A stretch of DNA of 64,000 nucleotides from G963667145 sp963676515 [NCBI: Candidatus Cloacimonadota bacterium] (lineage in GTDB: Bacteria > Cloacimonadota > Cloacimonadia > G963667145). The notes beneath the pieces were generated by a model. It had not been told where the DNA came from, did no database searches, and saw nothing but the letters and a program-made list of their open reading frames with translations. Below are positions 8,977 through 31,820 of the stretch, piece after piece. The position numbers and the translations under genes were made by a program. The DNA lies in contig OY781061.1 of assembly GCA_963676515.1 (NCBI GenBank), positions 1,178,001-1,242,000 on the forward strand. The letters run 5' to 3'. Within the stretch, counting starts at the first letter, position 1; each line of letters begins with the position of its first letter.

Positions 8977-9065
8977 GCAGAAGTGGTGGAATTGGTAGAC
9001 ACGCAAGACTAAGGATCTTGTGCCCGTTATTGGGTGTGCTGGTTCAAGTCCAGTCTTCTGCACCA
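8977..9065 (+). tRNA. tRNA-Leu, anticodon AAG
   Basis: An 89-nt class II tRNA with encoded CCA. The acceptor stem is GCAGAAG/CTTCTGC, the D-arm has AATTGGTAGA, and the anticodon stem is CAAGA/TCTTG with loop CTAAGGA, so the anticodon is AAG. The long variable arm is GCCC/GGGT and the T-loop is TTCAAGT. A34 in a bacterial tRNA-Leu is unusual, since CUU/CUC is normally read by GAG. Confidence 0.93.
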
Positions 9066-9079
9066 TTTCCTTTTATAGT

Positions 9080-9168
9080 GCAGGGGTGGTGAAATTGGTA
9101 GACACGCAAGATTCAGGTTCTTGTGCCCGTTATTGGGTGTGCTGGTTCAAGTCCAGTCTTCTGCACCA
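9080..9168 (+). tRNA. tRNA-Leu, anticodon CAG
   Basis: An 89-nt class II tRNA with encoded CCA, 14 bp after the preceding tRNA. The anticodon loop TTCAGGT gives anticodon CAG. Its 3' half, from the anticodon stem to CCA, is identical to the first tRNA, while the acceptor 5' strand is GCAGGGG, making two G-U pairs with the shared CTTCTGC. This points to a tandem duplication followed by divergence of the 5' half. Confidence 0.95.
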
Positions 9169-14804: not shown

Positions 14805-15914
14805 CTAAGCCGATGCTTTTTTGTTTACAGCTGTTTTGGTAGCTTTTATTTTCTTGTCGGCGTAGAGGACGACATCTTTTATCACCAGTTTTTGGATAGC
14901 GGAGATAAAAGTTTCCATAGCCGAGTAGTCGGGTTGGTGGGCTTGGGTGGGGAGAGAGATGTTTTGACTTCCGATAATTTTCACGCTAAAACTTGAACTA
15001 CCCCAAGTAAATGAACGGAAAGATTTTGTCATTGTAGAAATAAAAAATTGTGCATTTAATTTGTTGAATTTATTGCTTTTTGATTTTATAATCTTGATTT
15101 TGTCCCCTGTGAAATAGGGCTTTTCTTGGTAAAACATAGTTGCTGTGTCTTGCCCAAAAGAAATTGTATTCCCTTCGTTTAGAAATTTCTCATCTTCTTT
15201 TATATATCCACGAACACCGTTGTTTAAGGCTGTTCTTACTATATAGGGCTTGCCAGTTTCTGATATAAAGACTTTGTTTGCATCAAATCTTTTTTTATAA
15301 GTATTTATTTCAAAAAGTTCTCCAATTTCAAATTCATTCCACTCAAATTTTCCTTTTTCAAAATCTGCCAAAACCTTTTTTTCTTCTGCTGTTAGGTTGT
15401 AATCTTTTAATCCAGTCGCCAGCAAATAAGCTTCTAGCTCCGCTATTCGCTCCGCTTCTAGCTCCGCTATTCGCTCCGCTTCTAGCTCCGCTATGAAGTT
15501 CTCCATAAACTGAAAATCTATCTCGCCGTCTTTGGTGGGGAGTTGGATTTTGGTCTCATTTAGTCTGTCTCGGCTAATTTTACTAGCATAATTATATCTA
15601 GCATTGTTTCTTTTTAAAAGAGGAACTACGAATAAGCTAATGTCTTTAGTTAACCAGTTTGCTCTTAGAACAAGAATATTTACAGAAGCACAGAAATCAT
15701 TTTTTTGATAAAATACATTTTGGGCATAATTAACAGAAATTGTAATTGCATTACCTTTTATAATATTTTTTGAATAAGCTTTTTTAGTAATTCCATTATT
15801 AGTGGAAATCTCATTTATCATATTATAAGTTCCATCAGCAACCCTATTTGGTGCTGCTTCTTTACCTCTTTCTTGGTCAAACAAATCTTCAATCTTATAC
15901 TCGCCCCACTCCAC
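14805..15914 (-). CDS. Restriction-modification specificity subunit S
   Basis: A 369-residue protein with two half-sites, each starting with a similar segment (W-G-E-Y-K-I-E-D-L-F and W-N-E-F-E-I-G-E-L-F) as in S subunits with two target recognition domains. The halves are joined by a helical hinge with a tandem repeat A-E-L-E-A-E-R-I (DNA repeat 15431-15494). It directs the methylase/nuclease encoded just upstream to its bipartite target. The start is GTG, 30 nt after the stop of the partner gene; the ribosome binding site is weak, so translation may depend on coupling. It resembles the B subunit of BcgI-type systems, but a type I HsdS cannot be excluded from sequence alone. Confidence 0.88.
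   Translation of the reverse strand: MEWGEYKIEDLFDQERGKEAAPNRVADGTYNMINEISTNNGITKKAYSKNIIKGNAITISVNYAQNVFYQKNDFCASVNILVLRANWLTKDISLFVVPLLKRNNARYNYASKISRDRLNETKIQLPTKDGEIDFQFMENFIAELEAERIAELEAERIAELEAYLLATGLKDYNLTAEEKKVLADFEKGKFEWNEFEIGELFEINTYKKRFDANKVFISETGKPYIVRTALNNGVRGYIKEDEKFLNEGNTISFGQDTATMFYQEKPYFTGDKIKIIKSKSNKFNKLNAQFFISTMTKSFRSFTWGSSSFSVKIIGSQNISLPTQAHQPDYSAMETFISAIQKLVIKDVVLYADKKIKATKTAVNKKASA
15431..15494. repeat. 24-bp tandem repeat in the hinge of the S subunit
   Basis: Unit cttctagctccgctattcgc plus tccg occurs at 15431-15454 and 15455-15478, and its first 16 bp occur again at 15479-15494. The copies are identical. Each unit encodes eight residues of the helical spacer between the two recognition domains, so a change in copy number keeps the frame and changes spacer length. 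Confidence 0.9.
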
Positions 15915-15943
15915 GCTTGCTAGTTTCTCGTGAAGTGGGGAAA

Positions 15944-17977
15944 CTATTTTCCCAGGCGGTCGTCCTCCGAGTTGCTTTGTTTGAGGATATTACTCACTTC
16001 CCATGCTAGATAGTCGCCCACAGTTTTTTTGAAATCTTGCAGAGTTGGTCTGGTGTCTATCTTTTGATGATGACCGTAATTCCAATCTTCTCCATTATCG
16101 GTGATTACATCCATCGCTACCTGTTTTGGCAAGTCCCACAACTCTTTGGATACATTTGCAGTTACACCATTTTTGTAAATTTCTATGATGTCTTTGTAGC
16201 GTTGCATAGGCTTGTCTATTTCGTTCAGCCCTCGTCCCGTGCGTTTGTAGCCGTCCACCCGAAAGTCGATAAATTTCACTTGTTTAGCGTAATCGTGCGT
16301 TTTGCCAGTGTGTTCTACCACATAGATAGAAGTTTGCACGCCTGCCATCGGTTGGAAGAGGTCAACGGGCATTTTGATGCTGGCGAGCAGTTGATTTTGG
16401 CTGAGTATCGATTTACAACTTCTCACGCCTTTGCCATTGCCAGCAGAGTCTTGGATGATGATAGCAGCTTTGCCGCCGATTTGCATATGCTCCAGCCCAA
16501 ATCTGATGAATGGCATACCGTTTTCTTTAAAGCTAAACGGAGGATTGAGCAGGAGCCTGTCGGCGTTGAACTCTTGGTAAAGCTCCTGCGGTTCGTTGAA
16601 AGATGAGCCTTTTCGGATGTTGCTAGAGCCATCGCCTCGTAAAATCATATTTGTAGATGCCAGTGTGAACATCTCGGCGTTAAGCTCCACACCGAGTAGC
16701 TGTTCTTTTTTTATTTGCTTTATTTTATCATTCGCTTTTTTGGTTCCTTTGCCATATTTTTGTTCGGCAAGTTCTATCATTAGCTCCATCGATGAGATTA
16801 GAAATCCCGCTGAACCTGTGGCTAAATCCATAACTTTGGAGTTTTCGTCCACTTCCAAGATTTGAGTCATCATCTTGGTAACATAAGGCGGAGTGAGGAC
16901 AATCCCAATCTCTTTGCCATCGCCCAAAGCGTATTTCAAAAATTCGGAATACATTTCGCCCATTATGTCCAGATGCCCACTCATAGATTCGATAGACAAA
17001 AAGATGTTTTCATAGATATAGGTGAAAATTTGTTTATTTATACTTGCATTTTCGGGTAATAATTTAGCCACAATCTTATCTAACTCTGTTTTTTTGTCGC
17101 GGTCGGTGTCTTTGCTTATTTCCTTAAAAGATGACATCATCAAATCTCTTTTACTTTGAGGGATTTCTTTGTTTTTCAGGTAGTTTTCCAGATGTGTTAT
17201 GATGGTGTCGCCGTCTCTTTGTTTGTCGAGGTCGACACCTTTTAGGTCGTCGGGTATTAAGCCTTTTTTTTGATCGGCAATATCTTGCATTGCCAAGAGC
17301 ATACTCGAAACATACAAAACCCTCTGTGGAGCGGTGATAGCGTGGTTGTGCATCAGTTTGTTCAGCTTTTTGGCATACTCTTGTAATTTAGCTCGTGAAT
17401 CGATTAAGATTTTGTGCTTTTCGTTTTCGGTAAGTTTTACCGCTTTGTAAAATTCCGCAAAAGATTTTTTGGATTCTAAAAAATCTAAGGTGGTGTAGCT
17501 CTCGATAAATTTGTAAGTTTCGTCCGTAGAGCCAAAAACATAATAAACTTTTATGCTAACATTTTCCGCATTGTCCCCAGCGATACCGATTGCGATTGCT
17601 TCTTTGTATTTTTTGCTCATAAGAGCACACTGTGCATAGTGGATTGCTCCATTTACAGCGAAGTTTTTCACAGACTTTATGTCGTTCTTTACTTTTTCGC
17701 CATTACTGGATAATAGTTTGTTAAGCCCTAATTTGTTTTCAATTAAAACGGGTATTTTTTCATAAGTTTCAAGCTCGAAGTCGGGCTTCCAAGACTTGCC
17801 TTTTTCTTTTTCTCCTGCTTGTTCCAGTTCTATCCGTTTAAGTTTTACCCCTTCTTGGATGGCATCTTTAAGATATTCACTCATTGCAGATTCTACAGTA
17901 TAATTACTCTGTTTTATTCTTGCAAACTCCGATTTTACCCAGTCGTTTACCTTGTCTTCTAATTTCCAGTTTTTCAT
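15944..17977 (-). CDS. Combined restriction endonuclease/N6-adenine methyltransferase (type IIB/BcgI-like)
   Basis: A 677-residue protein. The N-terminal domain has K-P-D-F (PD at 65-66) and L-I-E-N-K (E80, K82), a PD-(D/E)xK nuclease core. The middle and C-terminal domain is an HsdM/N6_Mtase methylase with motif I D-L-A-T-G-S-A-G-F-L near residue 385 and motif IV N-P-P-F near 477. Having nuclease and methylase in one chain, with a separate S subunit and no HsdR helicase, matches type IIB systems such as BcgI. The start ATG has AAAGGA upstream. A TTGACA lies at 18071-18066 on this strand. The methylase call is certain; the nuclease call rests on the motif. Confidence 0.85.
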   Translation of the reverse strand: MKNWKLEDKVNDWVKSEFARIKQSNYTVESAMSEYLKDAIQEGVKLKRIELEQAGEKEKGKSWKPDFELETYEKIPVLIENKLGLNKLLSSNGEKVKNDIKSVKNFAVNGAIHYAQCALMSKKYKEAIAIGIAGDNAENVSIKVYYVFGSTDETYKFIESYTTLDFLESKKSFAEFYKAVKLTENEKHKILIDSRAKLQEYAKKLNKLMHNHAITAPQRVLYVSSMLLAMQDIADQKKGLIPDDLKGVDLDKQRDGDTIITHLENYLKNKEIPQSKRDLMMSSFKEISKDTDRDKKTELDKIVAKLLPENASINKQIFTYIYENIFLSIESMSGHLDIMGEMYSEFLKYALGDGKEIGIVLTPPYVTKMMTQILEVDENSKVMDLATGSAGFLISSMELMIELAEQKYGKGTKKANDKIKQIKKEQLLGVELNAEMFTLASTNMILRGDGSSNIRKGSSFNEPQELYQEFNADRLLLNPPFSFKENGMPFIRFGLEHMQIGGKAAIIIQDSAGNGKGVRSCKSILSQNQLLASIKMPVDLFQPMAGVQTSIYVVEHTGKTHDYAKQVKFIDFRVDGYKRTGRGLNEIDKPMQRYKDIIEIYKNGVTANVSKELWDLPKQVAMDVITDNGEDWNYGHHQKIDTRPTLQDFKKTVGDYLAWEVSNILKQSNSEDDRLGK

Positions 17978-19842: not shown

Positions 19843-19882
19843 AAGCCCCAAAAGATTTTTTCTAAAGGGGCTTATTTTTTTA
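19843..19882. terminator. Bidirectional terminator between buk and ilvB
   Basis: A 7-bp GC-rich stem, aagcccc (19843-19849) and ggggctt (19867-19873), has a T-rich tail on each side. It ends the convergent buk (+) and ilvB (-) transcripts. Confidence 0.85.
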
Positions 19883-21541
19883 TTTGGTCATCGCTTTTTC
19901 TATCGCTTTGCCCGGAGGCACCATAGGGTAAACGCATTCGTCGATGTCTATCTTGCAGTGCAATAGTGCCGGCCCTGAGCAAGAGATGAACTTTTGCATG
20001 GTGGAGTCTAGCTTGTCGCTCTTGTCCAGATGATAGTATGCGAAATCGTAGGCGTCAGCGAGTTTGTCCCAGTGTGGTCCTCGCTCCAGCGTGGTGGCAG
20101 AGTAGCGTTTGTCGAAGAACAGCGTTTGCCATTGTCGCACCATTCCCAGAGTGCCGTTGTCGATTAGGAGTATCTTGATGGGCAAATCGTAAGCTGTTAC
20201 CGTGGAGAGCTCGTGGAGGTTCATGCGGAACGATCCGTCGCCTGTGACCAAGATGACGGGTGTATCGGGGAAGGCAACTTGTGCACCGATGGCTGCTCCG
20301 AGTCCGAAGCCCATGGTGCCTAAACCACCTGAGGTGATGAACTTGCGGGGCTCGTCGAACTTGTAGTATTGGGCTGTCCACAGCTGATGTTGCCCTACAT
20401 CTGTGGTAACGATGCTCTCTCGTGGTGCAGTTTGGCTCATCTTGCTCAAGATGGCTTGAGGTGTGAGCCTGTCGCTGGCAGGTGGCAGAGTGATGTCGTA
20501 TTTTTCTTTGAGTGCTAAGATGGTTTTGTTCCACTCCAGATTTTCTTTGGGTGCTACCAGCTCTGTGAGCTCTTCCAAGATTTTGCTAGCATCTCCGACG
20601 AGGTTTGTGGCACAGAGGACATTTTTGTCGATTTCCGACTCGTCGATGTCGATATGCACGATTTGCGTGTTTTGCAGGAATGTATCGGGATTACTGGTGA
20701 CGCGGTCGCTAAATCTGGCACCGACTGCTAGCACCAGATCGCTCTGCTGGATAGCCACATTGGTGAATTTGGTGCCGTGCATCCCCACAAGCCCTGTGTA
20801 GTAAGGGTAATCGGGGTCGATAGAGCCGAGTCCCATTAGGCTGGAGGTCGCTGGGCTGTTGATTTTTTTCACGAATTTGTTCAGAGCTTTTGCCGCTTGG
20901 GGATTGTTCACTCCGCCGCCGAAATATATGTAAGGTCTTTGGCAATTGTTAATTTTTTGAGCGACTTCTACCAGCTGGGATTTTTGGGGATGAGGAATTT
21001 CCATAGGAATGATGTTTGGTGATTTGTACTCGACTTCTTGCAGAGCTACATCTTTGGGGATGTCGATTAACACCGCTCCTTTGCGTCCTGAGCTAGCTAT
21101 CAAGAAAGCTTTTTTCACGATTTTCGCCAGATATTTGGCGTCTTTCACAAAGTAGTTGTATTTGGTGATGCCGATGGTGATGCCCACGATGTCCACTTCT
21201 TGGAAGCTGTCTTTGCCGATTAGCGAGAGAGGTACATTGCTGGTGATGGCTATGATGGGGCTGGAGTCGATGTGGGCGGTGGCGATACCAGTGACCAGGT
21301 TAGTAGAGCCGGGTCCCGATGTTGCTAGGCACACTCCGACTTTGCCCGTAGTCCTTGCGTAGGCATCGGCTGCGTGGGCAGCGTTTTGCTCGTGTGAGGG
21401 GAGTATATTGGTGATTTTGTCTTGGTTCTTGTAAAGCTCGTCGTACAAAGGCAAGGCAGTGCCACCAGGATAGCCGAAAACCGTATCGACACCTTCTTCT
21501 ATCAAGGTTTTTATTACTATTTGTGCTCCTGTTAATTTCAT
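19880..21541 (-). CDS. ilvB: Acetolactate synthase, large (catalytic) subunit
   Basis: A thiamine-diphosphate enzyme of 553 residues that joins two pyruvates (valine/leucine) or pyruvate and 2-oxobutyrate (isoleucine). Visible: G-Y-P-G-G-T-A-L-P with the activating Glu in L-P-S-H-E-Q-N-A-A-H, and the ThDP motif G-D-G-S-F-R-M-N and I-D-N-G-T-L-G-M-V-R-Q-W. The start is set at the ATG of M-K-L-T-G-A-Q; an upstream ATG at 21559 (M-Q-K-E-E-H) would place the GAGGAG ribosome site inside the gene. It is the last gene of the operon, whereas its regulatory partner ilvN is the first. Confidence 0.96.
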   Translation of the reverse strand: MKLTGAQIVIKTLIEEGVDTVFGYPGGTALPLYDELYKNQDKITNILPSHEQNAAHAADAYARTTGKVGVCLATSGPGSTNLVTGIATAHIDSSPIIAITSNVPLSLIGKDSFQEVDIVGITIGITKYNYFVKDAKYLAKIVKKAFLIASSGRKGAVLIDIPKDVALQEVEYKSPNIIPMEIPHPQKSQLVEVAQKINNCQRPYIYFGGGVNNPQAAKALNKFVKKINSPATSSLMGLGSIDPDYPYYTGLVGMHGTKFTNVAIQQSDLVLAVGARFSDRVTSNPDTFLQNTQIVHIDIDESEIDKNVLCATNLVGDASKILEELTELVAPKENLEWNKTILALKEKYDITLPPASDRLTPQAILSKMSQTAPRESIVTTDVGQHQLWTAQYYKFDEPRKFITSGGLGTMGFGLGAAIGAQVAFPDTPVILVTGDGSFRMNLHELSTVTAYDLPIKILLIDNGTLGMVRQWQTLFFDKRYSATTLERGPHWDKLADAYDFAYYHLDKSDKLDSTMQKFISCSGPALLHCKIDIDECVYPMVPPGKAIEKAMTK

Positions 21542-21562
21542 ATGCTCCTCTTTTTGCAAATT

Positions 21563-23221
21563 TTAACTTTCCAATACCGCTCCGGTATCGGCAGATTGTA
21601 CCATTTTGGCGTAGCGTGCTAGATAGCCTGTTTTTATTTTTGGCTCTTCTAGGGTCGTCTCTTTTTTCCGCTTGGCGAGTTCTGCGGCATCCACGAGGAT
21701 GTCGAGCGTGCCTTTGTGCAGGTCGATTTTGACTAAGTCTCCTTCTTGCAGATAGGCGATAGGTCCTCCTGAGGCTGCTTCGGGCGAAATATGCCCGATG
21801 GCAAGTCCGCGAGTGGCTCCCGAGAATCTGCCGTCTGTCAAGAGGGCAACATCTTTGTCGAGCCCCATACCAGCCAGTAGAGAGGTGGGCGAGAGCATCT
21901 CACGCATTCCCGGTCCGCCTTTGGGTCCTTCGTAAGCGATGGCGATCACATCGCCTTTGTGGATTTTGCCAGCGATGATAGCCGCTACACAATCTTGCTC
22001 GCTGTGGAATACCCTTGCTTTACCGGTAAACTCGAAGATGGACTTGTCCACGGCAGATTTCTTGATAACCGCACCGTTGGGAGCCAAAGAGCCTTTGAGG
22101 ATCAAGAGTCCGCCTTGCTCTGAGTGTGGGTCTTCGCTAGGGCGTATCGTGGAGAAATCTTTGTTGTGGGCGTGTTCTATCCTGCTTTGCACGCTCCCTA
22201 GCACGGTCATCAGGTGAGTGTGCAGGAGTCCTTTTTTATTCAACTCTGCCATCACAGCACCTATGCCACCTGCTCTGTCGAGGTCTTCGATGTGCTTGTC
22301 GCCAGATGGCGATAGCTTGCAGAGGTTCGGCGTTTTGGCGCTGATTTGGTTTACTTTGTCCAATGAGATGTTGACATCGGCTTCTTTGGCGATAGCTGGC
22401 AGGTGCAGGATCGAGTTGGTACTGCATCCCAGTGCCATATCTACAGCCAGAGCGTTCTCGAAGGCGAGTTCGCTCATGATCTCTTTGGGCAAGATGTTGT
22501 GCTCCAGCAGATGCATAATGCGGTAGCCAGTCTCTTTAGCTAGGCGGATTCTCTTGCTATACACAGCTGGCACGGTGGCAGCTCCGGGCAATGACATCCC
22601 GATAGCTTCCGTCAGGCAGTTCATGGAGTTGGCAGTGAACATCCCCGAGCATGAGCCACAAGTCGGACAGCTCTCGTCTTCGTACTCTTTGAGTTTGGCT
22701 GCGTCGATTTTGTTGGAGTTGAATAGTCCGACCGCCTCGAAAGTGGATGCCAAGCTAATGGCTTTGTTGTCGAGCCTGCCAGCGAGCATCGGGCCGCCCG
22801 AGATGAAGATAGCTGGTAAGTTCAGTCTGGCGGCTGCCATGAGCATCCCAGGGACTATCTTGTCGCAATTGGGGATGAACACGAGAGCATCGAAGCCGTG
22901 GGCTCTTGCCATTATCTCTACGGAGTCGGCGATGATCTCGCGGGAGACTAACGAGTAGTGCATCCCTTGGTGTCCCATAGCGATACCGTCGCACACGCCG
23001 ATGGTGTTGAACTCTATGGGCGTGCCACCAGCGGCTAGGACGCCTGCTTTCACAGCGGAGGCTATCTTGTCTAGCTCTGTGTGTCCGGGCACTATTTCGT
23101 TTTTGGAATTTACTATGCCGATTAGTGGTCTTTCTATTTCTCTATCGGTGTAGCCACAAGCTTTCATCAAACTTCTGTGAGGAGTCTTATCGCTACCTTT
23201 TTTTACAACATCGCTTTTCAT
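21563..23221 (-). CDS. ilvD: Dihydroxy-acid dehydratase
   Basis: A 552-residue enzyme that removes water from 2,3-dihydroxy acids in valine and isoleucine synthesis. Cluster and metal ligands are visible in [17 protein letters not shown] and [12 protein letters not shown]. Length and motifs are those of the IlvD/Edd family, and the operon decides for IlvD over Edd. It lies 16 bp after leuB and 21 bp before the ilvB start. Confidence 0.97.
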
Positions 23222-23237
23222 ATCTTCACCTTAATTT

Positions 23238-24359
23238 CTAAATGTTTTCTGCTACTAAATCTCCCATCTGGGTCGTTCCCACCACTTTCGGGGAGTTTGT
23301 GCGACAAAGTTTGCTCCACCATGTTTCACAAACTTTTTGTTGTTGCGTCGCTTTTTGGGAATCTGTAGCGATATCTTGGGTGCGGTAACCGAGCTCCAAG
23401 ACTTTGGTTACAGCGTTTTCTATGCTTTGGGCTTCTTGCTCTAGGTCAAAGCTGTGGCGGAGCATCATGGCGATAGAGAGGATGGTAGCCAAGGGGTTGG
23501 CTTTGTTTTGTCCTGCGATGTCGGGAGCTGAGCCATGGATGGGCTCGTAGAGTCCGAACTTGCCTGTGCTCACGGATGAGGACGGCAGCATGCCGATGCT
23601 ACCTGTGAGCATTGAGGATTGGTCGGAGAGGATGTCGCCGAACATATTGCCTGTGACCAGCACATCGAATTGCGACGGATTGCGGACGAGTTGCATAGCG
23701 GCGTTGTCCACATACATATGCACCAGCTCCACTTCGGGGAACTCTTGGTGGACTTTTTCTACGGTTCTTCGCCAGAGGCGGGAGGAGTCCAGAACATTGG
23801 CTTTGTCCACGCTGGTAACTTTGTTGTTTCTCTTTTTAGCCATCTGGAACGCTAAACGGGCGATTCTCTCTACCTCGCTTGTGGTGTAGAGCAAAGTGTC
23901 GTAGGCACTATCGCCAGTGTCTGCTCGCTTGCCAAAATAGATGCCACCAGTTAATTCGCGGATAATCATGATGTCGATGCCTTGCTTGGCGATTTCTTCT
24001 TTTAGTAGGCAAGATTTGTAGAGAGCTTGGTGCATTTTGGAGGGTCTGATATTGGCGAAAAGTCCCAGCTCTTTGCGGATTTTCAAAAGTCCAGCTTCGG
24101 GGCGGTTATCGCCTTTCAGGTTGTCCCACTTGGGTCCACCCACAGCACCCAGCAGCACAGCGTCGGCGTTTTTGCAGATGTCGATAGTTTTTTGGGGCAG
24201 AGGGTTGTTCTCGGCATCCAGAGCTTCGCCACCTATAGGTGCGTATTCGTAGGAGAACTTTTTCCCGAACTTTTCACCGACTTTGTCCAAAACTTTCAGA
24301 GCTTCCCTTACGATGTCGGGACCGACACCATCACCTTTTAAAACAGCTATTTTCATCAT
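23238..24359 (-). CDS. leuB: 3-isopropylmalate dehydrogenase
   Basis: A 373-residue NAD-dependent enzyme oxidising 3-isopropylmalate in leucine synthesis. The N-terminus [25 protein letters not shown] (substrate loop) and G-S-A-P-D-I-A-G-Q near the C-terminus are typical. The start is put at 24359 because AAGGAG lies 7 bp upstream and the ATG overlaps the leuD stop (ATGA); the frame is open further upstream but only as leuD read in another frame. The C-terminal 30 residues extend slightly beyond the usual end. Confidence 0.97.
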
Positions 24360-24835
24360 TTTTTGCTCCTTAATTTGTTCATCAATCCGCCATCGGCGAT
24401 GATCTCTTGCATAAACTTGGGGAAAGGCATCGCTTGGTATTTTTTCCCTGAGGTAAGATTTTCGATTTTGCCAGTTGCCAGCTCGACTTTTAGGTTGTCG
24501 CCCGACTTTATTTCTTGGGCAGCTGCTTCGCATTCCAAGATAGGCAAGCCGATATTGATGGCGTTGCGGTAAAAGATGCGAGCGAAATTTTTGGCGATGA
24601 TGCAATAGATGCCAGAGGCACTAATAGCGATGGGTGCATGCTCACGCGATGAGCCACAGCCGAAGTTCGCACCTGCGACGATGATGTCGCCCTTTTCCAC
24701 AGTAGTGGGGAAGCTGGTGTCGATGTCTTCCATGCAATGTTTGGCAAGCTCTTGATGAGAAGATGTATTCAAAAATCTAGCGGGGATGATTACATCTGTA
24801 TCAACATTGTCGCCGTATTTATAAACTTTATTCAT
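24356..24835 (-). CDS. leuD: 3-isopropylmalate dehydratase, small subunit
   Basis: A 159-residue swivelling subunit with [14 protein letters not shown] at the start and [14 protein letters not shown], the substrate-recognition loop. Its short length puts it in the stand-alone (archaeal-type/HACN-like) LeuD group, matching the 419-residue LeuC. It pairs with LeuC to isomerise 2- to 3-isopropylmalate, and probably also citramalate. Confidence 0.96.
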
Positions 24836-24851
24836 AATTGGCTATTTCTCC

Positions 24852-26111
24852 TTATATTTCTCTGGGGTCGGTTATCTTGCCCGTGAGTGCAGAGGCTGCG
24901 GCGACTGTGGGCGATGCCAGATATACTTCCGACTTCACATGTCCCATTCTGCCGACGAAGTTTCTGTTGGTGGTCGATACGCACCGCTCGCCAGCTGCCA
25001 AGATGCCCATATGTCCACCGAGGCACGGTCCACAAGTAGGCGTGGACACTACCGCTCCAGCTCGCACGAAATCTTGCACGAGACCTTCCTCGATAGCTTG
25101 CAGATATATTTTTTGCGTGCCGGGCAAGATGATCACTCGCACGCCTTTGGCAACTTTCTTATCTCTCATTATCGCAGCCGCTTGGCGTAAATCTTGCATC
25201 CTTCCGTTGGTGCAAGAGCCGATGACCACTTGGTCTATCTTCAGTCCCTTAGCCTGCGAGATGGTTCTGGTGTTGTCTGGCAAAAATGGAAAAGAGACGG
25301 TTGGTTCGAGTTGGGCAAGGTCGATGGTAATCTCGCGAGAATATTCGGCATCTGGGTCGGCTTGGAACTCTTGGTACTCTCTTTTGGAATGCTCTTGCAA
25401 ATACTTTCTGGTCTTATCATCCACAGGGAAAATGCCGTTTTTAGCACCCGCTTCGATAGCCATATTGGCGACGGTAAACCTGTCTTCCATACTCAATGAG
25501 GCGATTCCCTCTCCGCAGAACTCCATCGACTCGTACAACGCTCCGTCCACGCCGATCATCCCGATGATGTGCAAGATGAGGTCTTTGCCGCTTACCATCG
25601 GTTGCATCTTGCCCTTGATGATAAACTTGATTGCTGAGGGCACTTTGAACCAAGTCTCGCCTGTCGCCATGCCATACGCCATATCTGTAGAGCCGATGCC
25701 CGTGGAGAAAGCTCCCAGTGCGCCGTAGGTGCAGGTGTGAGAGTCCGCTCCGATTACCACATCTCCAGCTACCACTAGCCCTTTCTCGGGTATCAGGCAA
25801 TGCTCGATGCCCATTTCGCCCACTTCGAAGTAGTTCTCTACCATCATCTCTTTGGCGAACTCGCGAACTTTTTTGCATTGCTCGGCGGCTTTGATGTCTT
25901 TGTTGGGCGTGAAGTGATCTGGCACGATAGCCACTTTCTTCTTGTCAAAAATTTTCTTTACTCCAGCTTTGTTAAATTCATCGATAGCCACTGGAGTGGT
26001 GATGTCGTTGCCCAACACTAAGGACAATTTTGCTTCTATCAACTCGCCGGCTTTTACTTCTTGTTTCCCAGCGGCGTGGGCTAAAATTTTTTGGGTCATG
26101 GTCATTCCCAT
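24852..26111 (-). CDS. leuC: 3-isopropylmalate dehydratase, large subunit
   Basis: A 419-residue aconitase-family protein. The 4Fe-4S ligands lie in V-I-G-S-C-T-N-G-R and C-G-P-C-L-G-G-H, and the active-site region [10 protein letters not shown] is present. The length fits the shorter HacA/LeuC type. AAGGAG lies 9 bp before the ATG. It precedes leuD by 16 bp. Confidence 0.96.
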
Positions 26112-26117
26112 AATAAG

Positions 26118-27683
26118 TTACTCCTTATTCATTAGTTTGTATTCCAGAGAGTCCACCAAGGCTATCCAACTGGCTTGGATGATGTTGGTCGAGACTCCCA
26201 CTGTTGTCCATGAGTCGTGATCATCGCCCGAGGTTATCAGCACCCGTACTTTGGCTTGACTCGCCTTTTTCTGATTTAATACTCGGACTTTGTAGTCGAT
26301 CAGGTTCACTTTCTTCAGACAAGGGTAAAACTCCTCTAACACCTTGCGGAGAGCTTCGTCCAGTGCGTTCACAGGGCCATTGCCCTCTGCTGCGGTGAAT
26401 CCCACTTTGCCATCAACCAAAATCTTGATGATAGCCGAAGATGTTTCGTTGTCGGACTCTTGGTCTCCAGCGATTATCTTGTAATGTTTGAGCTCGAACG
26501 AGGGCGTAAAAAGCCCTAAATGTTGCTTTATCAAAAGGGCAAAACTGGCATCTGCTCCTTCGTAAACATAGCCTTCAAACTCTTTTTCTTTTAGATATTG
26601 CACCAGCTCTTTTGCTTTTTGGGAGTCAATTTTGAGATTGGGTACAATTTTCAGAGCTTTTTCCAAAATCAAACTTTTGCCTCCCACTTCACTTACCAAA
26701 AATCTGCGTTTACCACCGATGGTTTCGGGGTTCAGATGCTCAAAGCTTTTGGAGTTCTTCCGCACGCCGTCCACATGCATTCCGCCTTTGTGAGCGAAAG
26801 CACTTCTGCCCACGAAAGGTGCACGGCTGGCTATTCTGATGTTGGCTATTTCGGCTACCTCTTTGGCGACACCAGTGAGCGTTCTCAGATTTTCTGGGGG
26901 TATGCAGCGGTAGCCTTTTTTCAGTTGCATATTCACGATGATGGACACAAGGTTTGCGTTGCCGCATCGCTCGCCAAAGCCCAAAAGCGTGCCTTGCACA
27001 TGTGTGGCTCCTGCCAGCACTGAGGCGATGGAGTTGGCGACTGCCATGTCGGAGTCGTTGTGAGCGTGTATGCCAATTTTTGCTTGCTTCCCGAATTTTG
27101 CGACCACCACTTTGGTAATTGCCTCCACTTCGTGGGGGAAACAGCCACCGTTGGTTTCGCACAGACACAAAACATCGGCGTTGCCATCTACGGCAGCTTG
27201 CAAGCATTGCATAGCGTACTCGGGGTTGCTTTTGTAGCCATCGAAAAAGTGCTCGGCATCGAAGATAACTTCTTTGTTTTTCCCTTTTAGATAAGCGATA
27301 GTCTCTTTTATCATCAGCAGATTTTCTGCTAAATCGCAGTTGATGATTTTCTCTACATGGAAATCCCAGCTTTTACCGAAAATGGCGACGACATCGCTAT
27401 TAGAGAGCAACAGGGAGTTTAAGTTTTCGTCATCTTCCGCTTTTATGAACTTGCGTCTGGTGGCACCAAAAGCCACGACTTTACTTGCTTGCGTGTCGAT
27501 AGAGTGCAAGCGGGAGAAGAAGTCCAAATCTTTAGGATTGGAGCCAGGATTGCCCGCCTCTATGTAGGCGACACCCAAGCGAGCCAAAGATTTGCTGATG
27601 GCGAGTTTGTCTTCCACGGAAAAAGAGATCCCTTCAGCTTGCGAGCCGTCCCGCAAAGTAGTGTCGAGGATATCTAATCGCAT
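26118..27683 (-). CDS. cimA: Citramalate synthase
   Basis: A 521-residue enzyme of the HMGL-like TIM-barrel family with an N-terminal D-T-T-L-R-D-G-S-Q-A-E-G-I and a C-terminal regulatory domain. The variant S-Q-A-E-G-I-S-F and the A-G-N-P-G-S-N-P-K segment mark the CimA group and set it apart from LeuA. It condenses pyruvate and acetyl-CoA to citramalate, giving 2-oxobutyrate for isoleucine without threonine deaminase. Its start overlaps the end of leuA by 10 bp. Confidence 0.93.
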   Translation of the reverse strand: MRLDILDTTLRDGSQAEGISFSVEDKLAISKSLARLGVAYIEAGNPGSNPKDLDFFSRLHSIDTQASKVVAFGATRRKFIKAEDDENLNSLLLSNSDVVAIFGKSWDFHVEKIINCDLAENLLMIKETIAYLKGKNKEVIFDAEHFFDGYKSNPEYAMQCLQAAVDGNADVLCLCETNGGCFPHEVEAITKVVVAKFGKQAKIGIHAHNDSDMAVANSIASVLAGATHVQGTLLGFGERCGNANLVSIIVNMQLKKGYRCIPPENLRTLTGVAKEVAEIANIRIASRAPFVGRSAFAHKGGMHVDGVRKNSKSFEHLNPETIGGKRRFLVSEVGGKSLILEKALKIVPNLKIDSQKAKELVQYLKEKEFEGYVYEGADASFALLIKQHLGLFTPSFELKHYKIIAGDQESDNETSSAIIKILVDGKVGFTAAEGNGPVNALDEALRKVLEEFYPCLKKVNLIDYKVRVLNQKKASQAKVRVLITSGDDHDSWTTVGVSTNIIQASWIALVDSLEYKLMNKE

Positions 27684-29197
27684 AAAAGCTCCATTTTGTT
27701 TACAGCGTTGAGGAAAGCTTTGATGCTGGCTTCTACCACATCTGTGGCGAGTCCGTATCCGCTGGCAGATTTTTTGTTTTCTCTGTTTTCTAGGGTAATG
27801 CTCACTTGCCCTTGGGCGTCTTCGCCACTGCCGATAGCTTTTACGATGTAGCTATTGAGGTTGTATTTTCGGGCAATAAGCTCTTCGATAGCTTTAAAAG
27901 CCGCATCGACTAGTCCATCGCCGTTTTTGGTGGCAGACAGAGAGCCGTTCTTTTCATCTTTCAAGGTGATGTTCACTGTAGGCGTGATATCCATTCCCGA
28001 GTTGAAAGTAAAATCTTCTAAGCTGTAGCGGGGCTTGAGAGTACTGCTGACTTTGCTTTGTGCCAGAGCTTCCAAATCCAAATCGGTAATGTCTTTCTTT
28101 TTGTCTGCCAAAGTCTTGAAATTCACAAAAATTTCTTCTAGTTGCTTTTTGTCAAAAGTGTATCCCAGCTCGCTTAGCTTGTTCTCAAAAGCGTGCTTCC
28201 CTGAATGTTTGCCCAAGACGAAAGAGTTCTGGAGGATGCCGACCGACTGTGGTGTCATTATCTCGTAGGTCTCTTTGTTCTCTAGCACGCCGTGCTGATG
28301 GATACCAGCTTCGTGAGCAAAAGCGTTCTTGCCGACGATAGCTTTGTTGGCTTGCACCACGCTGCCCGTGATGGAGCTGATCATCTTGGAGCTGTGGAAG
28401 ATTTCTTCGGTGGCTATTTTGGTCTGCACGCCGAAGTGATCTTTACGCACGGTAAGTCCCATCACCACCTCTTCCAAGGCGGCGTTGCCTGCTCGCTCGC
28501 CGATACCGTTGATGGTGCATTCCACTTGGTCAGCCCCTGCTTTCACCGCTGCCAAGGAGTTAGCGACAGCCAGCCCCAGATCGTTGTGGCAATGCACGGA
28601 AATCGTGGCTTTGTCTATATTGGGGACATGCTCTTTCAGATATGATATGAGTGCTGCGAATTCATCGGGAGTGGTGTAGCCCACAGTGTCAGGCACATTG
28701 ATTACCGTAGCTCCAGCATCTATCACCGCGGTGATTATCTCCACGAGGTAGTCCCTATCGCTGCGGGTGGCATCCTCGGCGGAGAACTCGATGTCCTCGC
28801 ACAGAGATTTGCCGTATGCTACCATCTCTCGTGCCTTCTGCAGAGCTTGCGTGCGACTCATTTTCAGCTTGTACTGCAGGTGAATGTCAGATGTAGCGAT
28901 GAAGATGTGTATCCTGGGCTTTTTGGCGTGCTGTACCGCTTCCCAAGCTCTGTCGATGTCTTTCTTGTTAGCTCTTGCCAGAGATGCCACTCCGATGTTT
29001 TTCACGGTCTTGGCAATTTGGGAGATAGACTCAAAATCTTCGTTAGATGATATAGCAAATCCTGCTTCGATCACATCCACGCCGAGCTTCTCTAGTTGCA
29101 AAGCTATCTGTAGTTTTTCCTTTAGGCTCATCGAGCAGCCGGGTGATTGTTCTCCATCGCGTAAGGTGGTGTCGAAAATTTTGATAGTCCTGTCCAT
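27674..29197 (-). CDS. leuA: 2-isopropylmalate synthase
   Basis: A 507-residue enzyme that commits 2-oxoisovalerate to leucine. The catalytic barrel has [12 protein letters not shown] and the metal-binding H-C-H-N-D-L-G-L-A; the C-terminal LeuA dimer domain binds leucine for feedback control. The adjacent cimA is a paralogue, so the pair covers leucine and isoleucine entry. Confidence 0.96.
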
Positions 29198-29211
29198 TTT
29201 TTCTCCTAATA

Positions 29212-30709
<1,498 letters not shown>

Positions 30710-30751
30710 ATATTTCTCCTTAAAAAAATCTTTTGAAATTTGGTTGATTAC

Positions 30752-30786
30752 GCTGTCTTTATAAAGTCTGAGACTATAAAGACAGC
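30752..30786 (-). promoter_or_regulatory. Hairpin of the ilv attenuator
   Basis: A 12-bp perfect inverted repeat (gctgtctttata/tataaagacagc) with a short inner arm agtct/agact. On the minus strand its 5' arm begins at the last base of the leader peptide stop codon. It is not itself followed by a T run; a run of seven T is 25-35 nt further on, before the ilvN ribosome site. The CTGTCT of its 5' arm is repeated inside the leader gene at 30845-30840. Confidence 0.8.
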
Positions 30787-30872
30787 TAGATGAGGACTAG
30801 AATAATGCAAATAATGGAAATCAAGCGTAGCTCTCTGAGAGACAGAGATAAAAGAAATAAATTTCTATACAT
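30786..30872 (-). CDS. ilvL: ilv-leu operon leader peptide
   Basis: A 28-codon gene lying in the leader of the ilvN-to-ilvB operon. It begins ATG-TAT-AGA-AAT, with AAGGTG 6 bp upstream. It has nine Leu, six Ile and one Val codon; its last eleven residues read I-S-I-I-C-I-I-L-V-L-I before TAG. This is the signature of ribosome-mediated attenuation, in which lack of charged tRNA-Leu or tRNA-Ile stalls the ribosome. The stop overlaps the hairpin at 30786. The enterobacterial IlvL is a functional parallel; I claim no homology. The opposite-strand open frame here is its shadow. Confidence 0.85.
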   Translation of the reverse strand: MYRNLFLLSLSLRELRLISIICIILVLI

Positions 30873-30936
30873 AAACTACACCTTGATTAATCATTTTCAA
30901 TACCTTGATAAGAAACACAGATATTGTTTAACTTCC

Positions 30937-30965
30937 CAACCTGATAAGGTTCGCTTTTTTGTCAA
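30937..30965 (-). promoter_or_regulatory. Promoter motif TTGACA-N20-TTG of the ilv-leu operon
   Basis: On the minus strand TTGACA (30965-30960) and TTG (30939-30937) span 29 bp, ending in AGGTTG. The leader peptide starts 65 bp downstream, a suitable distance for a short 5' UTR. Confidence 0.6.
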
Positions 30966-31100
30966 ACAGAAAAAAGGTAATTTTTGCTGAAAGCTTTTAA
31001 ATTGCAGGTTTTAAGAGATTTTCTGGGTAGAGGTTCGCGAGGAAAAGATGAAAAACAGGAGTTAAAAAGTGGTTACAATAATGAAACCGAATAGACAGAA

Positions 31101-31138
31101 AATGAGACTTTGCTAAAAAACAAAGCCTCATTTTTTTT
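31101..31138 (+). terminator. Terminator hairpin between the ilv-leu operon and the EIIA gene
   Basis: Stem aatgag-a-ctttg (31101-31112) and caaag-c-ctcatt (31121-31132), with one mismatch, is followed by eight T on the plus strand. No plus-strand gene ends here, so its main job is probably to end the minus-strand EIIA transcript, whose gene stops at 31152. Confidence 0.65.
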
Positions 31139-31151
31139 GAGATATTTCTTA

Positions 31152-31820
31152 TTAAAAATCGAAATTGGGTTTGAGCAGAAGTTGTAAAATCTCGTTAGGA
31201 TCGGTACTGGTTTTCAATATTTTCATACTGTCTTTGTTGAGCAAAATTTTGTTCAGATAAGACAGAGAGAAAAGGTGCTCTTTTTCGTTGCGTAGGAGCA
31301 GGAGGAACATAAGGTGCACAGGTTTGTTGTCCAGAGCACCGAAATCTATGCCTTGGGCTGATCTGGCTATCAGGACGCTGGGGGTGCTGATCTTGGTAGG
31401 GTGGGGAGCTCTGGTGTGCAAAAAGGCGATACCATCTCCTACAGCGGTGGTGGCCATATTTTCTCGTGCCACTATTGTCTCGTTGAGCCAGCGATGATTT
31501 TGCACGATTTCACAGTCTTTGGCAAAGCTCGAAATTTTGGCGATAGCGTCGAATTTGTTGCCAGCTTCAAAGTTCAGATTGATGTATTCGGGCTTGATAT
31601 AGTCCGAAAATCGGCAAGTAATCCTTTTGATAGCAAGTTGTTTTTGCTCTTCTTCTTCCAGATTGGAAATCCATTCATCGATTTTATCTTTGTTCAATTT
31701 TATCGTCTTGCCCGATTTTACCGTTTTAAATCCGTTCACTTTGATCAGTTCGTTCAAGATAGTCTCGTTGACTCTCAGATAAGCTACGCATTTTTTAAAG
31801 GTTATAAGATTTTCTGCCAT
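31152..31820 (-). CDS. PTS EIIA-type (PtsN-like) domain with N-terminal helix-turn-helix
   Basis: A 222-residue protein. Residues 1-55 look like an excisionase-type helix-turn-helix (V-A-Y-L-R-V-N-E-T-I-L...I-D-E-W). Residues of about 70-222 are a mannitol/nitrogen-type EIIA domain with A-V-G-D-G-I-A-F-L-H-T-R, in which H135 is the expected phosphorylated residue. The combination suggests a phosphorylation-controlled regulator, not a sugar transporter part; no EIIB or EIIC gene is near. It ends the minus-strand cluster that starts at 38428. Confidence 0.85.
   Translation of the reverse strand: MAENLITFKKCVAYLRVNETILNELIKVNGFKTVKSGKTIKLNKDKIDEWISNLEEEEQKQLAIKRITCRFSDYIKPEYINLNFEAGNKFDAIAKISSFAKDCEIVQNHRWLNETIVARENMATTAVGDGIAFLHTRAPHPTKISTPSVLIARSAQGIDFGALDNKPVHLMFLLLLRNEKEHLFSLSYLNKILLNKDSMKILKTSTDPNEILQLLLKPNFDF

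What the first reader, a model, noticed from the sequence alone, without database searches (positions are those of the whole stretch)
30786..30872. Leader peptide with 16 branched-chain codons in 28 upstream of the ilv-leu operon
The minus strand carries ATG 30872 to TAG 30786 with its own Shine-Dalgarno (AAGGTG). Nine Leu, six Ile and one Val codon, nine of them in the last eleven sense codons, can hardly be chance. It lies between a promoter and ilvN, where leader peptides lie in enterobacterial ilv and leu attenuators. The order ilvN-C-leuA-cimA-leuC-D-B-ilvD-B is not enterobacterial, so this would be an independent or widely spread use of ribosome-mediated attenuation. Too short for ordinary gene callers.
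Basis: partly seen in the sequence, partly recalled or inferred. Interest (0 to 1): 0.85.

Follow-up and report, generated by a model that had tools for sequence, protein, structure and literature searches.

The report
Amino-acid-sensing leader peptide before ilv operon
A tiny gene full of isoleucine and leucine codons sits in front of the genes that make those amino acids and very probably acts as a ribosome-read sensor of their supply, a known kind of control that appears here in an uncommon form without the usual transcription stop signal.

Summary
Minus strand 30872-30786 encodes MYRNLFLLSLSLRELRLISIICIILVLI*, 16 Leu/Ile/Val codons of 28, 9 in the last 11, behind an SD and ahead of ilvN-C-leuA-cimA-leuC-D-B-ilvD-B. 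Such an ATG frame arises in 5 of 20000 shuffles (0 with share and SD too). A second signal is a 13-bp helix starting inside the stop codon (3 of 5000). Distant loci show the same plan: BCAA frames before ilvN in 43 of 47 spirochaete-group loci and before ilvD in 30 of 30 Bacteroidetes-group loci. Clostridial L001 and L044, with the identical gene order, carry a T-box instead. So 'leader peptide' is supported; a classical transcription attenuator is not, as no terminator was found between leader and ilvN. Folding suggests that the Ile/Leu codons pair with the ilvN start site and that a stalled ribosome frees it, but that test is weak. No close relative was found and the phylum is unknown. A known kind of regulation, in an uncommon variant.

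The parts
30786..30872 (-). leader peptide frame, 28 codons, MYRNLFLLSLSLRELRLISIICIILVLI*
30879..30884 (-). Shine-Dalgarno AAGGTG of the leader frame
   Evidence: read from sequence; one search scores 5 letters
30789..30821 (-). sensing run: last 11 codons, I S I I C I I L V L I, 9 branched-chain
30752..30786 (-). stop-anchored helix: 13-bp arms 30786-30774 and 30764-30752, beginning with the G of the stop codon
   Evidence: 3 of 5000 shuffles; the region 30700-30800 folds with z -2.65, 3 of 200 shuffles as well
30805..30811 (-). UUUGCAU across the Ile-Cys-Ile codons, complementary to AUGCAAA at the ilvN start (30709-30703); with UCCU 30796-30793 against AGGA 30720-30717 it closes the predicted start-site lock
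   Evidence: weak null tests
30722..30728 (-). U7 tract, 23 bases behind the helix, directly before the ilvN Shine-Dalgarno
30716..30721 (-). Shine-Dalgarno AAGGAG of ilvN
30215..30709 (-). ilvN, acetolactate synthase small subunit, first gene of the operon
19880..30204 (-). rest of the operon: ilvC, leuA, cimA, leuC, leuD, leuB, ilvD, ilvB
31099..31134 (-). terminator-like hairpin behind the preceding PTS IIA-like gene, upstream boundary of the transcription unit

Best explanation
It is the leader peptide of a ribosome-read sensor of charged Ile/Leu tRNA that controls the ilv-leu operon. SHOWN by sequence: a non-random frame ending in an Ile/Leu run, its own SD, a strong helix that begins in its stop codon, and no recognisable intrinsic terminator before ilvN. 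INFERRED: when Ile and Leu are plentiful the ribosome reads through and leaves, and the Ile/Leu codons then pair with the SD and AUG of ilvN, with the stop-anchored helix holding the two segments side by side, so ilvN is translated poorly and the operon is expressed poorly. When Ile or Leu is short, the ribosome dwells on codons 23-28, covers the locking segment and frees the ilvN start. The confidence given is for 'leader-peptide attenuation of some form'; for the translational form I give 0.45.
For: Chance tests for the frame and for the stop-anchored helix. Operon of exactly the matching pathway. The same plan in distant groups: 43 of 47 and 30 of 30 loci with BCAA frames (loci within a group are related, not independent); CCRCGR directly behind the leader stop in 40 of 47; a 9-pair helix in the Bacteroidetes group with both-side changes kept in 3 pairs, better than shuffles at 5% in 25 of 30. 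Leaders without a U-run next to that helix are the rule there: U5+ within 10 bases in 0 of 26, four loci dropped. Predicted fold of the free RNA: mean unpaired probability of ilvN SD plus AUG 0.13-0.14, rising to 0.52 with the A site on codons 23-26 and 0.43 on codons 23 and 25. The LEU element of Actinobacteria, where leucine codons are predicted to pair with the leuA SD, is a described precedent (PMC1262725, section on leucine read).
Against: The start-site lock is not much stronger than in controls: both criteria (locked when free, opened when stalled) are met by 29 of 200 permutations of synonymous codons, 10 of 200 random synonymous recodings and 5 of 200 leader shuffles. A ribosome at the stop codon opens the start about as well (SD 0.56, AUG 0.48), and stalls at the first Ile codons, 18 to 22, do not open it (SD 0.24-0.32, AUG 0.07-0.28). 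In the Bacteroidetes group the same calculation shows no change between states (SD 0.37 free, 0.36 stalled), so the lock is not shared there. No close relative was found, so no covariation test was possible. Neither comparison model finds the window's leader, though the models are narrow. One locus with the same gene order, L028, has no such frame. In Streptomyces coelicolor, changing the ilvB leader codons had no effect (reported in PMC1262725), so leaders can mislead.
Confidence: 0.82

Rival explanations
1. Transcription attenuation: the stop-anchored helix is the antiterminator (2:3). When the ribosome reaches the stop it blocks the 5' arm, and RNA polymerase then terminates at the U7 tract with a weak hairpin, or with Rho. 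(This and the translational form together make up the 0.82 of the best explanation.)
For: The helix sits where the antiterminator sits in the spirochaete group, where 27 of 27 loci of the set L177-L203 have CCRCGR behind the stop, CCGTGG, and a C/TGGG arm followed by T4+ (alignment). The window's U7 lies 23 bases behind the helix; in the Bacteroidetes group U5+ tracts, present in 13 of 26, lie 12-32 bases behind.
Against: No terminator-like site on the minus strand between leader and ilvN. With the stop region covered, the predicted fold shows no stable hairpin before the U7. No C-rich unstructured stretch for Rho is evident in the 76 bases between stop and ilvN (read from sequence, not computed).
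Confidence: 0.37
2. A small hydrophobic membrane peptide (or a toxin-like peptide) with its own function, next to the operon by coincidence.
For: The C-terminal half is hydrophobic; by L/I/V share alone three other short frames in the window score higher.
Against: Same strand, directly before a BCAA operon; the last 11 codons are Ile, Leu and Val but for one Ser and one Cys, without Ala, Gly or Phe; a helix starts in its stop codon; BCAA frames recur at this place in distant groups.
Confidence: 0.06
3. Chance frame in an AT-rich intergenic region; the operon is controlled by other means.
For: No close relative was available for a conservation test; a loose chance test gave 48 of 5000.
Against: Strict tests 0-5 of 20000 for ATG frames, 3-24 of 20000 with all three starts; separate helix signal 3 of 5000.
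Confidence: 0.08
4. An unrecognised T-box or riboswitch, as in clostridial operons of the same gene order.
For: T-box directly before ilvN in L001 (sequence motif) and L044 (Rfam), both with the same nine-gene order.
Against: No Rfam match at gathering level in the window other than two tRNAs, and no T-box in the permissive scan of 30500-31300 (ten matches, all far under their cut-offs, the only riboswitch SAM-V at 17.7 bits against 41).
Confidence: 0.03

Closest known systems
Enterobacterial ilv and leu leader-peptide attenuators (anatomy recalled; mentioned in passages of PMC5794164)
   Same: Short frame rich in BCAA codons ahead of a BCAA biosynthesis operon; an RNA helix tied to the position of the stop codon.
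   Different: No terminator with a U-run found between leader and first gene; other gene order.
LEU element upstream of leuA in Actinobacteria (PMC1262725, leucine section and passages read)
   Same: Leader frame with a codon run; the codon run is predicted to pair with the SD of the first gene, around an inner structure.
   Different: Here a plain stop-anchored helix; a pseudoknot was not looked for; first gene ilvN, sensing run richer in Ile; no conservation data. The published authors favoured a protein-binding role.
ilvB-II, ilvB-OMG and Leptospira ilvB motifs (PMC10272879, abstract, section 10 part 1 and section 14 read)
   Same: BCAA-rich upstream frame before an ilv operon; ilvB-OMG has 41 representatives from various phyla, the ilvB motif is in Leptospira.
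   Different: ilvB-II ends in a stem followed by uridines; those motifs precede ilvB. No direct comparison with their alignments was made.
S. aureus ilv-leu attenuator (PMC5794164, passages read)
   Same: Leu/Ile-rich leader of a whole ilv-leu operon, found where B. subtilis has a T-box.
   Different: Putative terminator 52 nt behind the stop in S. aureus; none found here.
Leaders before ilvN in the spirochaete group and before ilvD in the Bacteroidetes group (found here)
   Same: BCAA frame, helix behind the stop, same or similar operon; the Bacteroidetes group also lacks a U-run next to the helix.
   Different: Covariance models of subsets of both groups do not match the window's leader.

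Membership tests
Leader-peptide (uORF) attenuators of amino-acid operons, broad kind | short frame enriched in codons of the pathway's end products | tested here: met
Leader-peptide (uORF) attenuators of amino-acid operons, broad kind | directly upstream, same strand, of a biosynthesis operon for those amino acids | tested here: met
Leader-peptide (uORF) attenuators of amino-acid operons, broad kind | frame conserved in close relatives | tested here: inconclusive
   no close relative found; analogous frames in distant groups
Leader-peptide (uORF) attenuators of amino-acid operons, broad kind | expression responds to Ile/Leu supply through leader translation | not testable with these tools
   needs experiments
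Classical transcription attenuator (enterobacterial ilv/leu type) | intrinsic terminator (hairpin plus U-run) between leader and first gene | tested here: not met
   none on the minus strand by the consensus scan; U7 lies 23 nt behind the helix
Classical transcription attenuator (enterobacterial ilv/leu type) | helix (2:3) whose 5' arm is covered by a ribosome at the leader stop | tested here: met
   5' arm starts in the stop codon, 3 of 5000 shuffles; that the ribosome covers it is inferred
Classical transcription attenuator (enterobacterial ilv/leu type) | mutually exclusive 3:4 helix | tested here: not met
   no stable alternative seen with the stop region covered (prediction only)
LEU-element-like translational attenuator | codon run pairs with the SD of the first gene | tested here: inconclusive
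   predicted, but null tests weak (29, 10 and 5 of 200)
LEU-element-like translational attenuator | conserved pseudoknot of the LEU element | not tested
   the folding programs used here do not predict pseudoknots
T-box | match to RF00230 | tested here: not met
Spirochaete-group ilvN leader (model R1 of 27 loci) | match to the covariance model | tested here: not met
   no match at the leader. The model is narrow: of 35 other sources it finds only L159, L161 and L162 and misses known leader loci such as L147 and L153-L158
Bacteroidetes-group ilvD leader (model R2 of 30 loci) | match to the covariance model | tested here: not met
   no match at the leader; 0 matches in 23 loci of other groups
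ilvB-II / ilvB-OMG / Leptospira ilvB motifs | match to their published alignments | not tested
   alignments not at hand; I did not check whether Rfam 15 holds them; no Rfam match of any such name appeared

The most novel reading that the evidence does not exclude
A broad, largely undescribed set of BCAA leader attenuators in non-model phyla works with a helix anchored at the leader stop codon and without an intrinsic terminator beside it, acting on translation start (or through delayed termination). Operons of one and the same gene order have exchanged T-box control for this leader control when they moved between phyla, the window being one case in which the sensing codons themselves lock the start site of ilvN.
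Probability: 0.25. Interest if true: 0.6.

Novelty: new variant of a known kind. Interest (0 to 1): 0.4.

Why it matters
Leader-peptide sensors are too short for ordinary gene callers, and the cases I know come from a limited set of phyla. If the reading is right, BCAA operons of one gene order are run by T-boxes in some clostridia and by leader peptides elsewhere, a clean natural case of regulator replacement. A leader without a terminator would test whether stalling can act on translation start in amino-acid operons, a question left open for the LEU element. If only the broad reading holds, it is one more member of a well-known kind.

Tried and rejected
Phylum of the window: release factor PrfA reached at most 56% identity over most of its length (25 genomes, 145 genomes, 116 matched at E <= 1e-100, 4 genomes, 0 of 80 at E <= 1e-124), Tgt at most 57% (38 of 40 genomes matched). 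Two partial PrfA matches of 62 and 64% cover only about residues 104-353. The phylum stays unknown; my guess of an FCB-type bacterium rests on gene content alone and is not claimed.

Rfam: nothing at gathering level at the leader, only noise in permissive scans of the window, L027 and L013. A leader before thrA (45230) was considered and rejected: that stretch holds a longer frame, which I take for a GtrA-like small membrane protein (name recalled; sequence). Start-site opening as a shared feature of the Bacteroidetes group: tested, not seen. Of the 80 loci I looked at the upstream regions of 39 for leader frames, without a chance control; these are not counted. Errors of mine: the leuB query was out of frame, so leuB in those gene orders is unreliable; it was redone for eleven loci. 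(ilvN in two phyla, 149 and 148 genomes) gave loci with only 1.5 kb flanks, which I mapped for gene order but did not scan for leaders. Literature: seven searches. No listed paper that I looked into describes BCAA leaders before ilvN in spirochaetes or ilvD in Bacteroidetes; PMC7366714 (passages) mentions short frames reminiscent of leader peptides in 5' UTRs of Bacteroides, and Lopatovskaya et al. 2010 (seen only as a reference in PMC4833913) may cover part of it and was not read.

Full report
WHAT IS THERE. The minus strand 30872-30786 carries ATG...TAG for 28 residues, MYRNLFLLSLSLRELRLISIICIILVLI, with 9 Leu, 6 Ile and 1 Val, 9 of them in the last 11 codons. The SD AAGGTG stands six bases before the ATG. 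After a gap of 76 bases behind the stop begins ilvN (30709), followed by ilvC, leuA, cimA, leuC, leuD, leuB, ilvD and ilvB; all nine score above the cut-off of their NCBIfam families. In the nine genes ATC is five times as common as ATT, yet five of the six Ile codons of the leader are ATT; this may reflect base composition.

IS IT CHANCE. In dinucleotide shuffles of the 442 bases upstream of ilvN, 5 of 20000 contain an ATG frame with at least 9 branched-chain codons in its last 11, 3 of 20000 one with at least 16 such codons making 57%, and 0 of 20000 one with run, share and an SD together (24, 6 and 3 when GTG and TTG count as starts). A looser test gave 48 of 5000. A second signal, not built on the codons, is a 13-bp helix whose 5' arm begins with the G of the stop codon (30786-30774 with 30764-30752): 3 of 5000 shuffles do as well.

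WHAT IS NOT THERE. The consensus scan finds no terminator and no sigma-70-like promoter on the minus strand between the preceding gene's terminator-like hairpin (31134-31099) and ilvN. The helix is followed by GUAAUCAACC, not by U; a U7 stands 23 bases further on, just before the ilvN SD. Rfam has nothing at its gathering level here, T-box included.

COMPARISON WITH OTHER GENOMES. The ilvC search kept 80 loci of many phyla, none closer than 72%. At least four of them, L001, L013, L028 and L044, have the identical nine-gene order (leuB was checked in eleven loci only). L001 and L044 carry a T-box directly before ilvN (sequence motif; Rfam), L013 (titled Spirochaetia) carries a BCAA leader, and L028 shows neither. 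From relatives of the L013 and L027 genomes 60 loci were fetched, 30 from each search (39 of 61 and 51 of 60 genomes matched). In 47 of these ilvN is not preceded by ilvB (46 distinct places, since L162 and L205 are one); L147, L177 and L184 are the loci L013, L027 and L019 seen again, and many others are close to each other, so the count is not one of independent events. 43 of 47 have a frame ending 50-170 bases before the aligned ilvN start with at least 7 of the last 12 codons branched-chain, and in 40 of 47 CCRCGR follows the stop; of the 13 loci where ilvN follows ilvB, 0 have such a frame; of 2350 shuffles 50 do. The misses are L152, L160, L184 (6 of 12) and L204. Of the set L177-L203, 27 of 27 have CCRCGR, CCGTGG and a C/TGGG arm followed by T4+, which reads as a classical antiterminator-terminator pair. 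Of the eleven loci L147-L151 and L153-L158, closer to L013, only L149 and L155 have a run of five or more T between leader and ilvN (folds).

THE BACTEROIDETES GROUP. Relatives of the L058 genome (titled Bacteroidetes; 45 of 77 genomes matched, 30 loci fetched) have a BCAA frame before ilvD in 30 of 30 (no shuffle control was run on this group). It is followed by a 9-pair helix GTCAATCCC:GGG(A/G)TTGAC in which 3 pairs show both-side changes that keep the pair; 5 of the 9 pairs have one or two sequences that break them. That helix beats shuffles at 5% in 25 of 30 by a simple contiguous-helix score, not in L213, L220, L230, L233 and L234. By the same score only 2 of 27 spirochaete loci pass at 5%, so the measure is weak for their shorter helix, and the helix there rests on its conserved letters. 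U5+ within 10 bases of the Bacteroidetes-group helix occurs in 0 of 26; four loci were dropped because the pattern did not find their 3' arm. Covariance models of the two groups find no match at the window's leader, but R1 at least is narrow: it finds 3 of 35 other sources and misses known leader loci among them. The window shares the plan; common descent is not shown.

HOW IT MAY WORK. In the predicted fold of the free RNA the leader's UUUGCAU and UCCU pair with AUGCAAA and AGGA of the ilvN start, around the stop-anchored helix. Mean unpaired probability of SD plus AUG is 0.13-0.14; a ribosome with its A site on codons 23-26 raises it to 0.52, on codons 23 and 25 to 0.43 (slightly different 3' end). 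Stalls at codons 5, 9, 13 and 17 leave it locked (0.16), and so do stalls at the first Ile codons (A site on codons 18-22: SD 0.24-0.32, AUG 0.07-0.28), whereas a ribosome at the stop opens it about as well as a stalled one (SD 0.56, AUG 0.48). The model therefore needs quick release at the stop. Against controls the lock is weak: 29 of 200 synonymous permutations, 10 of 200 recodings and 5 of 200 leader shuffles do as well on both counts. In the Bacteroidetes group no such opening is predicted. I hold leader-peptide attenuation at 0.82, the translational form at about 0.45 and a transcriptional form at about 0.37, these two being shares of the whole.

WHAT IS KNOWN. BCAA leaders are known or proposed in enterobacteria, Corynebacterium, Lactococcus, Streptococcus and Staphylococcus (PMC5794164, passages), in Mycobacterium and Streptomyces (PMC1262725, leucine section and passages), in Leptospira and, as ilvB-OMG, in various phyla (PMC10272879, sections 10 part 1 and 14). 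The LEU element of actinobacterial leuA pairs a leucine-codon run with the SD (PMC1262725); its authors doubted classical attenuation, because changes to leucine codons had not affected regulation as expected. The window is thus a new case of a known kind, in the uncommon form without a recognisable terminator.

LIMITS. 

Noticed in passing
L147-L206, upstream of ilvN: A conserved BCAA leader attenuator before ilvN in the spirochaete group, many ending in SSALLLSVLVITC-like peptides, with CCRCGR behind the stop, CCGTGG and, in the set L177-L203, a U-run terminator. The three members scanned with Rfam (L013, L019, L027) have no match there.
   Followed up: partly
L207-L236, upstream of ilvD: A conserved BCAA leader before ilvD in the Bacteroidetes group, many ending in LLGIIILSLLGIIILVG-like peptides, with a 9-pair helix behind the stop and no U-run next to it. 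The one member scanned with Rfam (L058) has no match.
   Followed up: partly
window 8977-9168 (+): Two tandem tRNA-Leu genes with anticodons AAG and CAG as called by ARAGORN; AAG would be unusual in a bacterium (recalled).
   Followed up: no
window 30894-30865 (-): A nine-codon frame MINQGVVYV* overlaps the leader ATG in another frame (read), and the leader's own SD can pair with its later codons (AUCAAGGUGUAG with CUACGCUUGAU); meaning unknown.
   Followed up: no
window 14805-17977 (-): Type I restriction-modification-like pair (names from reading the sequence, no family search); the S-like subunit repeats ERIAELEA in its middle.
   Followed up: no
L014 7480-7720, L038 7600-7800: Further BCAA-rich frames with a hairpin and U-run before ilvB in Oligosphaera ethanolica and in a Clostridiales MAG.
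   Followed up: no
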